In this document: piece by piece, positions 1-35,169 of the stretch
How the letters are laid out: the number at the start of each line of letters is the position of its first letter
Position numbering within the stretch: the stretch's first letter is position 1
Made by a program: the position numbers and the translations under genes
Notes under the pieces: model-generated
Databases searched by the model: none
The model's input: only the letters and a program-made list of their open reading frames with translations
Told to the model about the DNA's origin: nothing
Assembly (NCBI RefSeq): GCF_900167335.1
Contig: NZ_FUXI01000002.1
Span: forward strand, 1-38,171
Source: Pilibacter termitis
GTDB lineage: Bacteria; Bacillota; Bacilli; Lactobacillales; Streptococcaceae
Length of the DNA stretch: 38,171 nt
Direction: 5' to 3'

Positions 1-36
1 CAGACTTCAAATCGCCCTTCTTCGCTTTTCTTTGTC
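1..36 (-). repeat. Truncated copy of nested-hairpin repeat at window edge
   Basis: Read on the minus strand this segment begins with CAAAGAAAAGC (24-34) and continues into AAGGGCGATTTGAAG, which matches the left arm of the complete repeats at 18486-18726. It therefore looks like a second tandem copy cut off by the window edge. The copy-to-copy connector (GCTAGACAAAGAAAAGCG) is the same as between the two full copies near 18600. Confidence 0.6.
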
Positions 37-153
37 TAGCTGCGAGGGGCAGGAGTTTGGCAACTGTTCGCAACAGCACTTGAAACTTTGTTTCAAGCAA
101 GTAAATGCTGTGGCTCACTGTTGCAAACTCCTAACCGCCCCTCTTCGCTTTTC
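37..153 (-). repeat. Nested-hairpin dispersed repeat, copy A
   Basis: On the minus strand the element runs AGAAAAGCG, then an outer stem GAGGGGC/GCCCCTC (137-143 with 44-50), a second stem AGGAGTTTG/CAAACTCCT, a short CAAC/GTTG stem, ACAGCA/TGCTGT, and an apical CTTGAAAC/GTTTCAAG hairpin. Copies B and C have the same architecture with different bases that still pair (TGGC/GCCA for CAAC/GTTG, TGAAG/CTTCA for AGGAG/CTCCT, CTGGAAAC/GTTTCCAG at the tip). That points to a selected or mechanistically required structure. It starts within a few bases of the stop codon of the sortase-family gene on the same strand. Function and mobility mechanism are unknown. Confidence 0.8.
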
Positions 154-155
154 TG

Positions 156-848
156 TTAATAAGCAATCACGATTAAATTTGTTGTGCGTGAGAGGCAGGT
201 TTGTAGTGTGATTCGCTCTCCTCCTCCAGTGCCTGTGATAATGCTCCAGTAGTCACGTTTTGTGCCGATTTCATAGGCTTTGTCGTCTACACGAGTAATC
301 ACACGTACACGGTAATTGCGTTTCTTTTTTGCACTGTCAACAACGGTAATCATGTCGTTGTTTTTTAATTGAGTAAGTACGTTGAATGCACCGGGGTTGT
401 GGGCGATAAAGTGTGTGTTTTTATTGTCTACACAAGATTGTGCCGTAACGCCACCCCAAGTTGCTGCTTCGGTTTTTGGATTTTTATTAATGACAGCTTG
501 TCCTGTTCTTGTTCCTGCAACAGTATAATGGATGATTTGGTTTTTGATAATGAAATATTGAGAAGTATAATTATTTGCCGTATCTGGCAAATCTTCTCCC
601 ATTAAGTCATCTGCCCCACCTGCATAAATTGCAAGTTTTCCTTTGTCGTCAGGATTTGCGTCTGCTTCGTTTACAATGTCAATACTCCTGTCATCGTCAT
701 TCGTAACAGATGATGTTGTTTGATCTTTGCTGCCACTCGCACTTTTGTCTCCTTGATTCGTCAAAAGGAAAAAAGTGCTTACAATAGCAACTAAGGCGAG
801 TGCTGCAACGGAAGATGCAAGGAATATGAGTAATTTTCTCGTTTTCAT
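156..848 (-). CDS. Sortase-family transpeptidase, membrane-anchored, class unassigned
   Basis: This 230-residue protein has an N-terminal membrane segment (about residues 6-29), a Ser/Thr/Asp-rich low-complexity linker to about 70, and a C-terminal sortase fold. The expected active-site residues are visible: His150 in THFIAHNPG, Cys218 in TLQTC and Arg221 just after it. By family knowledge these carry out Cys-based cleavage and transpeptidation of sorting signals on the outer face of the membrane. The start is supported by GGAGG about 8 nt upstream and by a promoter with TTAACA and TATACT. It lacks the DP(F/W/Y) lid and second membrane segment of pilin polymerases, so it is not a classical class C enzyme. 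The spacing TLxTC-x2-R is shorter than in many SrtA enzymes (often 8-9 residues), so the Arg assignment is tentative. It is divergent from the surface locus; its substrate cannot be told. Confidence 0.8.
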   Translation of the reverse strand: MKTRKLLIFLASSVAALALVAIVSTFFLLTNQGDKSASGSKDQTTSSVTNDDDRSIDIVNEADANPDDKGKLAIYAGGADDLMGEDLPDTANNYTSQYFIIKNQIIHYTVAGTRTGQAVINKNPKTEAATWGGVTAQSCVDNKNTHFIAHNPGAFNVLTQLKNNDMITVVDSAKKKRNYRVRVITRVDDKAYEIGTKRDYWSIITGTGGGERITLQTCLSRTTNLIVIAY

Positions 849-18269: not shown

Positions 18270-18497
18270 ATGAATATTAATCAAGTTACATTTTTTCAGG
18301 CAAACACAATGACCTCAAAAAACACGTTTCACATCACAGAGGAGCCGATTCCTACGACAACAGAGACGTATTCTTTCATGCCAAAGGAAATCATGCCAAG
18401 CATGAATGAAAGTATTTCTTTTCTCGCTTGTTTTCTAGGCACGTGCATTGTGTTGCTTAGTCTATATTTTCTCTTGCTCCATAAAAGAAAAGCGTAG
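18270..18497 (+). CDS. Small protein with degenerate sorting signal (MPSMNE), no signal peptide
   Basis: A 75-residue protein preceded by AAAGGAGGTGATG. Its N-terminus is polar with no signal peptide. The C-terminal 36 residues read MPSMNE, a hydrophobic stretch of about 22 residues and HKRKA, which is the layout of a sorting signal in which LPxTGE has become MPSMNE. WxL operons commonly include a small LPxTG protein, and this gene stands just before the WxL genes, so it is probably a decayed or repurposed version. The last five codons and the TAG are supplied by the left edge of repeat copy B. It could still be a tail-anchored membrane protein. Whether it is expressed is unknown. Confidence 0.55.
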   Translation: MNINQVTFFQANTMTSKNTFHITEEPIPTTTETYSFMPKEIMPSMNESISFLACFLGTCIVLLSLYFLLLHKRKA

Positions 18498-18604
18498 AGG
18501 GGCGGTTTGAAGTTTGTGGCAGTGAGCCACAGCATTTACTTGCTGGAAACCAAAGTTTCCAGTGCTGTTGCGAACAGCCACCAAACTTCAGCCCCTCGTA
18601 GCTA
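18486..18604 (+). repeat. Nested-hairpin dispersed repeat, copy B
   Basis: The outer stem is GAGGGGC (18497-18503) with GCCCCTC (18591-18597). Inside it are TGAAGTTTG/CAAACTTCA, TGGC/GCCA, ACAGCA/TGCTGT and an apical CTGGAAAC/GTTTCCAG hairpin with loop CAAA. It is followed by GTAGCTAGACAAAG, which joins it directly to copy C. The left edge overlaps the end of the small gene at 18270-18497. Confidence 0.85.
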
Positions 18605-18726
18605 GACAAAGAAAAGCGAGCGGGGCGGTTTGAAGTTTGTGGCAGTGAGCCACAGCATTTACTTGCTGGAAACGCTAGTTTCCAGTGCTGTTGCGAACAT
18701 CCACCAAACTTCAGTCCCTCGTAGCA
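18605..18726 (+). repeat. Nested-hairpin dispersed repeat, copy C
   Basis: This is a near-identical tandem neighbour of copy B, differing in the apical loop (GCTA instead of CAAA) and with a weaker outer stem (GCGGGGC against GTCCCTC). Its right end is GTAGCACAAGG, which runs straight into the ribosome binding site of the WxL gene at 18749, so the structure lies in that gene's leader. Confidence 0.85.
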
Positions 18727-18748
18727 CAAGGAGGGAGGCGTATAGAGC

Positions 18749-19324
18749 ATGGGTGTAATGCGTAAGAGCTACCTTTTAGCTATATTCGGTGTTCTGTCAA
18801 TGTGTCCGTTTACTACAAGTTTTGCAGTGGAAAATGGGAGCATAGAAACAGAGCTGAATTTAGTGGGGGGTATCTACTTTGCCAGTATATCAGACGTTGA
18901 CTTTGGTACCGTCACAAACAAGGAATTAGGCACAGTAATTTACAACAAAACTCCGCTGGAAGTTCGCATACGTGATGAACGTGATGAAAAACGCTCCACG
19001 TGGAAAGTTTCAGTAAAAGCCGAAATTGCACAGGAAAACAAAGGGAAAACCTATCCGCTAAGTATTTATACGATAGACGGATCTTACGCCTATGTATTTG
19101 GCAACGGAGCAAGTGTAGACGAGGCGAGAATTTCCACACGAAAATATAGCTCAAACCCAAAGGGCAGCGACTTTCAAGAAATATTGGCATTGAAAGGGGG
19201 GAGCGAAAGTGATTACCGACTTGTCTGGGAAGTGGGAAGCCTAGAGCTATATTTGGGCAAAGATTTAGATGTGGGTGATTATACCATTCTCACGACATGG
19301 CAAGTAGTAAACAGTATCGAATAG
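18749..19324 (+). CDS. Small WxL-domain surface protein
   Basis: A 191-residue secreted protein with signal peptide (about 1-26, ending SFA; an alternative start at the fourth codon gives MRKSYLL). The mature part shows the WxL domain layout: an early IYFASISDVDFGTV stretch, a first Trp motif WKV (85-87) after an RIRDERDEKRST segment, and the C-terminal WQV (184-186) in TTWQVVNSIE, equivalent to WTLTDSP of typical members. WxL domains bind peptidoglycan non-covalently on the outer wall. The ribosome binding site AAGGAGGGAGG directly follows repeat copy C. It is the first gene of the WxL cluster; Val in place of the final Leu of WxL is a mild departure seen in both motifs. Confidence 0.75.
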   Translation: MGVMRKSYLLAIFGVLSMCPFTTSFAVENGSIETELNLVGGIYFASISDVDFGTVTNKELGTVIYNKTPLEVRIRDERDEKRSTWKVSVKAEIAQENKGKTYPLSIYTIDGSYAYVFGNGASVDEARISTRKYSSNPKGSDFQEILALKGGSESDYRLVWEVGSLELYLGKDLDVGDYTILTTWQVVNSIE

Positions 19325-35014: not shown

Positions 35015-35169
35015 GGGCACCTCTAAAAACTCGCACTTATCCTAAATTGCTAGTTTTCCGATTTTCTTCGTCAGTCTCCTCAACCTATGAACCACATAGC
35101 TTTCGTCGATTTCCTCGAAAATCTAAAAACTAGCTAATTTAGTCTTAAGCGGAGTTTTTAGAGGAGCCC
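35015..35169. mobile_element. 155-bp MITE-like element with ~52-bp terminal inverted repeats and ATAA target duplication
   Basis: Left end GGGCACCTCTAAAAACTC and right end (reverse complement) GGGCTCCTCTAAAAACTC match at 17 of 18 positions, and similarity extends over about 52 bp at each end (35015-35066 and 35117-35169), including CTAAATT, GCTAGTTTT and GATTTTC. The element is flanked by ATAA at 35011-35014 and 35170-35173. It has no coding capacity and is probably mobilised by a transposase elsewhere. I cannot assign the parent insertion sequence family. It lies between the locus III hairpin and the lectin pilin gene. Confidence 0.8.

What the first reader, a model, noticed from the sequence alone, without database searches (positions are those of the whole stretch)
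18486..18726. Nested-hairpin dispersed repeat with compensatory base changes
Seen: copies B and C in tandem here and copy A on the other strand at 37-153 (with a truncated tandem partner at 1-36). The stems differ by paired substitutions: TGGC/GCCA against CAAC/GTTG, TGAAG/CTTCA against AGGAG/CTCCT, and CTGGAAAC/GTTTCCAG against CTTGAAAC/GTTTCAAG. The single-stranded parts (AGTGAGCC, TTTACTTG, TGCGAACA) are constant. Covarying stems with conserved unpaired segments are the signature of a structured RNA or a hairpin recognised by a protein. No known family came to mind.
Basis: partly seen in the sequence, partly recalled or inferred. Interest (0 to 1): 0.72.

Follow-up and report, generated by a model that had tools for sequence, protein, structure and literature searches.

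The report
Folded repeat arrays beside gene starts
The hairpin repeat is real: it is one of several hundred copies of a folding DNA element that this bacterium carries in head-to-tail arrays between genes, often just before the signal that starts protein synthesis, and relatives in other genera share its ends and its fold although the letters of the fold have changed.

Summary
The finding holds and is larger than described. The window lies in a 2.79 Mb Lactobacillales genome with 360 exact head-to-tail junctions of this unit (reversed control 0) and 77 units in 40 arrays in a 446 kb sample. In 80 non-redundant copies 96.8% of stem cells pair and 31 of 41 pairs show two-sided changes; 0 of 500 shuffles reach this. 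The same ends and architecture occur in Enterococcus sp. 5H and its genus (12 of 12 sampled genomes) and in Listeria rustica. Empty and filled copies of a second repeat show that units insert. Arrays lie between genes, often beside a Shine-Dalgarno site: sense here (29 versus 1), antisense in two enterococcal genomes (20 versus 0). No Rfam family matched, and no Y1, IS110 or reverse-transcriptase gene was found. Best reading: a new family of mobile elements recognised by their fold, which also stack at their own ends. The mobilising enzyme is unknown, and whether the selected strand is RNA or single-stranded DNA is not shown.

The parts
18486..18609 (+). Unit B, full length, head of a two-unit array
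18610..18728 (+). Unit C, tandem to B; its last bases are shortened (GTAGCACA instead of GTAGCTAGACA)
32..154 (-). Unit A, directly after the stop codon of the sortase-like gene 156-848 (-)
1..31 (-). Start of the next tandem unit after A, cut by the contig end
   Evidence: junction C23:24-41
18730..18751 (+). Shine-Dalgarno region and ATG (18749) of the next gene, directly after unit C
18309..18497 (+). Small open frame of 62 aa with a hydrophobic stretch and HKRKA tail; its last codons and stop lie inside unit B

Best explanation
A family of non-autonomous mobile elements of about 120 nt that are recognised by their fold rather than by the letters of their ends. Shown: hundreds of copies; strong compensatory change; insertion into a second repeat at one point; short flank sharing; placement between genes, often beside a Shine-Dalgarno site, in a clade-fixed orientation; the same architecture in other Lactobacillales. 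Inferred: an enzyme of the host or of another mobile element recognises the folded strand AAAAGC to GCTAGA, as single-stranded DNA or as RNA, and inserts a copy at A/G-rich sites such as CAAAG|GAGG with a repeat of about 5 nt, so that the Shine-Dalgarno site survives. The junction so made (GCTAGA-CAAAG-AAAAGC) resembles the target, so further, different units enter there and build arrays. Selection keeps the fold in lineages that still move; inserted copies then decay.
For: 360 exact junctions, reversed control 0. 31 of 41 pairs with two-sided change, 0 of 500 shuffles. Terminal stems change letters and stay paired (helix 2: 5 of 7 pairs with two-sided change). Six empty copies of a second repeat and eight copies with units at the same point. 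Flanks share more than permuted flanks (4.08 vs 3.54, 0 of 500) and linkers agree within arrays (65% vs 24% expected), while adjacent units are no more alike than units of different arrays (0.787 vs 0.779). Close copies differ by one-sided changes, far copies by compensated ones. G.T exceeds A.C on the strand AAAAGC to GCTAGA here (59:19) and in enterococci (50:31) although gene orientation is opposite.
Against: No enzyme or autonomous relative found; five tyrosine recombinases exist but none is linked. No strain comparison shows recent movement. The flank signal is small and the flanks are low in complexity. 8 of 82 adjacent pairs exceed 95% identity against 0.4% of random pairs, so some local duplication occurs, and non-adjacent units of an array are more alike than random (0.819), which stepwise insertion does not explain; short-read assembly may have lost identical neighbours. 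The enterococcal G.T excess is marginal (P 0.045, cells not independent). Strict sense orientation here would also fit a role in mRNA.
Confidence: 0.6

Rival explanations
1. A cis-acting regulatory or processing RNA: units are kept in leaders and between cistrons because the folded RNA is bound or cut (for example by RNase III) and tunes the next gene.
For: Sense orientation (29 ++ versus 1 --); Shine-Dalgarno and start codon within 45 nt to the right in 44 of 87 arrays; a nine-hit array between purN-like and purH-like genes; G.T excess on the sense strand.
Against: In two enterococcal genomes the orientation is opposite (20 -- versus 0 ++) while the favoured strand is still AAAAGC to GCTAGA. 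The downstream genes that I recognised by eye from their first codons have no common theme (recognition from memory, not a count). Empty copies of the same site exist.
Confidence: 0.22
2. BOX-type or ordinary IS-derived MITE repeat already known under another name.
For: Similar size, intergenic, folded, variable length; BOX has terminal inverted repeats and target duplications (passages of PMC3049150).
Against: BOX is modular (boxA, boxB, boxC); here the whole unit repeats. The strict junction is absent from 45 of 45 sampled genomes of g5, taken to be Streptococcus by inference, and the model finds nothing in the two g5 genomes tried. Covarying terminal stems do not fit an enzyme that reads fixed inverted repeats.
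Confidence: 0.1
3. No selection: arm-to-arm template switching keeps the palindrome paired.
For: Long palindromes can be corrected in this way (established knowledge).
Against: Copies at least 97% alike show no compensated change (0 in 16 comparisons); invariant non-pairing motifs and the G.T to A.C imbalance need strand-specific constraint.
Confidence: 0.04

Closest known systems
BOX elements of Streptococcus pneumoniae
   Same: Small, intergenic, predicted RNA folds, variable length (passages of PMC3049150)
   Different: BOX is built of boxA/boxB/boxC modules; here whole units of about 124 nt repeat head to tail
REP/REPIN elements moved by RAYT (Y1) proteins
   Same: Short dispersed hairpins; recognition of a folded single strand (recalled, and search listing)
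   Different: Longer (about 120 nt) and no Y1 transposase match in this genome
MITEs such as RUP and Correia/NEMIS elements
   Same: Non-autonomous, intergenic, folded, short flank duplications (passages)
   Different: The terminal stems here covary instead of keeping fixed inverted repeats; no parent IS found
Integron attC sites
   Same: Works alike in principle: imperfect hairpins with conserved bulges and variable stems, one strand recognised (recalled)
   Different: No cassettes between units and no integron integrase identified; membership not tested
Efa-1 of Enterococcus faecalis
   Same: Intergenic structured enterococcal repeat (passages of PMC2267715)

Membership tests
REP/REPIN with RAYT | Y1 (PF01797) transposase in the genome | tested here: not met
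   0 matches; controls ring in 5 of 14; genome 98.67% complete
Rfam families (release 15) | Gathering score of any of 4227 families | tested here: not met
   0 in the window and 0 in 12 further loci; weak matches far below gathering
BOX | boxA/boxB/boxC modules | not tested
   No BOX sequence was fetched; only indirect: strict junction in 0 of 45 g5 genomes
MITE | Clean empty and filled sites | tested here: met
   6 empty and 8 filled copies of a second repeat
MITE | Target site duplication | tested here: inconclusive
   Flanks share more than permuted ones, but the signal is short and A-rich
MITE | Terminal inverted repeats of a parent IS | tested here: inconclusive
   Terminal stems pair but vary in letters; no parent element among 15 split-end candidates; ISs were not surveyed
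Group II intron or other retroelement | Reverse transcriptase (PF00078) | tested here: not met
   0 matches in this genome
IS110 bridge RNA | IS110 transposase (PF01548) | tested here: not met
   0 matches in this genome
Integron attC | Integron integrase and R boxes | not tested
   Five Phage_integrase genes were found but not typed

The most novel reading that the evidence does not exclude
A previously undescribed kind of mobile nucleic acid of Lactobacillales that spreads through a folded single strand (DNA or RNA) without a Y1 transposase, an IS110 transposase or a reverse transcriptase, settles beside Shine-Dalgarno sites so that the gene start survives, and stacks into arrays because its own junction mimics that target. 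The enzyme would be of a new kind, or a tyrosine recombinase used in a new way.
Probability: 0.25. Interest if true: 0.82.

Novelty: new variant of a known kind. Interest (0 to 1): 0.64.

Why it matters
One genome holds hundreds of diverged copies of a single fold, a natural mutational scan of it. The family occurs in several families of Lactobacillales, has no Rfam entry, sits beside the starts of ordinary genes, and its mover is unknown. The nearly strict but opposite orientation in two clades makes the choice between an mRNA function and a transposition preference directly testable.

Tried and rejected
Led nowhere: plasmid and phage records gave no match. Nine library searches showed no description of this family in what they listed, for four short motif strings, returned 342 papers, of which the 15 listed look like chance primer matches and the other 327 were not seen. 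An autonomous element with a gene between the unit ends: 15 candidate lines; 14 have the coordinates of long-variant halves or array ends (not inspected one by one) and one, L200, was read and is a rearranged flank repeat.

Rejected: a lagging-strand preference as the cause of orientation (runs with genes here, against them in the enterococci; no replication origin was mapped); simple tandem duplication as the main source of arrays (with 8 of 82 exceptions); mutation bias as the only source of the G.T excess (should reverse in the enterococci, marginal).

Rows dropped before counts: one search took 146 end-to-end hits of 221, kept 144 and reduced them to 81 at 93% identity; L061:6654 was then left out of A1 (80). 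One search gives context for 39 of 40 arrays. One search uses 61 arrays with readable ends, 87 distinct arrays. A2 has 54 of 55 units (L215:923 left out). (15 arrays: -- 9, -+ 3, +- 3) kept an overlapping opposite-strand hit and is replaced.

Full report
What is there. The window is C23:1-38171 of a 2,794,241-base genome in 59 contigs, 98.67% complete. Its family holds a large genus of 1.2-2.5 Mb genomes and the best named PurH match is a Streptococcus (77%), so Streptococcaceae is my inference. BLAST with copy B lists 133 places, with 40 of 281 first-look candidates scored. A covariance model from 80 copies finds 150 places at E 3.4e-27 or better, all of the 150 scored of 1846 candidates. The junction AGCTAGA-N3..9-AAAAGC occurs 186+174 times; read backwards, 0 times.

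Units and arrays. In 446 kb from three contigs, the window included and otherwise taken without regard to hits, there are 40 arrays and 77 units: 54 short, 12 long, 11 partial. Scaled up that is about 480 units; the 360 junctions imply somewhat more. The long form (178-180 nt, 18 units) carries an almost invariant insert of about 60 nt with its own hairpin at the apical end, while its scaffold varies like that of short units. The period is 123-124 nt, with a linker usually of 5 nt.

Fold. On alignment A1 (80 units), six of the seven column pairs with the highest corrected mutual information are stem pairs and the seventh is 54-57. 96.8% of 3280 cells pair and 31 of 41 pairs show two-sided change; 0 of 500 shuffles reach either; structures slid by 1-3 columns fall to 32.5-40.8%. 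Invariant or nearly so are the A36.A91 mismatch (80 and 79 of 80), the tandem G.A at 39/40 and 87/88 (80 of 80), G19 and T21 in the 5' bulge (80 and 79), and T50, T51, A53 in the apical bulge (80). Between copies at least 97% alike (16 comparisons) there is no compensated change; below 80% identity there are 10.0 compensated pairs against 2.3 breaking changes per comparison. That time course fits selection on the fold better than copying between arms.

Strand. Non-Watson-Crick cells in the stems are G.T 59 and A.C 19 on the strand AAAAGC to GCTAGA (nominal P 6e-6). With pairs predicted on both strands it is 22 to 7 (P 0.008). The sequences are related, so these P values are nominal.

Other genomes. 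The stricter junction (ending CTGA) occurs in 42 of 295 Lactobacillales genomes, its reversed control in 1: 12 of 12 of genus g28 (5 to 22 copies each), 4 of 6 of g20, 6 of 9 of g42 and 0 of 45 of g5. The other 20 genomes, this one among them (2 copies, because its units rarely end in CTGA), have few matches, many of them single and possibly chance. G228 of g28 has the coordinates of the genome of Enterococcus sp. 5H. With the looser pattern Enterococcus sp. 5H has 12 (control 1) and Listeria rustica 7 (control 2). Read directly, their units have the same ends, CGTT-like bulge and nested hairpin. Across the class, 3 of 121 genomes match, one of them outside the order and once, no more than the control with 3 genomes. 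The only other genome of the same genus (59% complete) has none. The model made from this genome finds units in G143, G151, G267, G287 (g28) and G027, G135 (g20), but not in G081, Enterococcus sp. 5H (G311), L. rustica (G318) or the 7 genomes of other genera tried; G006 and G015 of the same family also match. The enterococcal alignment A2 (54 units) folds alike, with two-sided changes in 27 of 32 pairs.

Insertion. A second repeat with inverted ends exists empty (GTTCAT|AGGTTGAGGAG) at six places (L034, L042, L195, L202, L209 and this window) and with one or more units at that point at eight (L033, L036, L042, L060 twice, L198, L199, L204); L045 keeps only its left side. Over 61 arrays the two flanks share more than permuted flanks (4.08 against 3.54 nt, 0 of 500); linkers agree inside an array (65% of 69 against 24% expected) and resemble the left flank (0 of 500). 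Adjacent units are on average no more alike than units of different arrays (0.787 against 0.779; 82 and 1472 pairs), although 8 of 82 exceed 95% identity (random 0.4%), and non-adjacent units of one array are more alike (0.819, 90 pairs). I read this as repeated insertion of different units at one target plus some local duplication. The last figure is not explained, and short-read assembly may have lost identical neighbours.

Place and orientation. For 39 arrays the upstream and downstream genes relative to the unit are ++ 29, +- 5, -+ 4, -- 1. Of 87 distinct arrays 44 have a Shine-Dalgarno-like site and a start codon within 45 nt to the right in sense; the three other placements score 6, 3 and 8. 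67 of 87 have a stop triplet within 15 nt to the left, but in any frame of A-rich DNA. In two g28 genomes (760 kb, 26 arrays): -- 20, -+ 5, +- 1, ++ 0, and 18 of 26 have an antisense Shine-Dalgarno motif within 22 nt left of the array, 0 of 26 a sense one to the right. So both clades place units beside the Shine-Dalgarno site, but on opposite strands. Because the same strand shows the G.T excess in g28 (50 to 31, P 0.045), I lean to a fold used for spreading rather than a fold in the mRNA. This step is inference.

Mechanism. Terminal stems change letters yet stay paired, so an enzyme that reads fixed inverted repeats in double-stranded DNA is unlikely. Y1 transposase, reverse transcriptase and IS110 transposase were not found; five Phage_integrase genes were. 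The mover is unknown.

Literature. I saw passages of PMC3049150, PMC10969869 and PMC2267715; other papers only as listings with the start of their abstracts. No description of this family appeared in the listings; most subscription journals are not in the library.

Verdict. It is best filed as a new family in the broad BOX/REP/MITE kind with an unusual set of features: conservation of the fold across genera, arrays of whole units, placement beside Shine-Dalgarno sites and clade-fixed orientation.

Noticed in passing
window 35015-35169: Empty copy of a second dispersed repeat with inverted ends (GGGCACCTCTAAAAACTC), MITE-like, many copies in this genome.
   Followed up: partly
window 18309-18497 (+): A 62-aa frame with a hydrophobic stretch and HKRKA tail whose last codons and stop are supplied by unit B.
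   Followed up: no
window 1512-38041: Run of surface-protein genes: sortases, SpaA/Cna_B pilin-like proteins, WxL-interacting protein.
   Followed up: no
L031, L033, L037, L039, L041 and others (18 units): Long unit form with an almost invariant 60-nt insert that carries its own hairpin.
   Followed up: partly
L200:9001-9720: A flank of about 270 bp repeated around intact and deleted units, suggesting local rearrangement at arrays.
   Followed up: no
L214, L217 (enterococcal): A further repeated stretch (GGTAACAACGTTCCGCTTTGC) to the right of the arrays.
   Followed up: no
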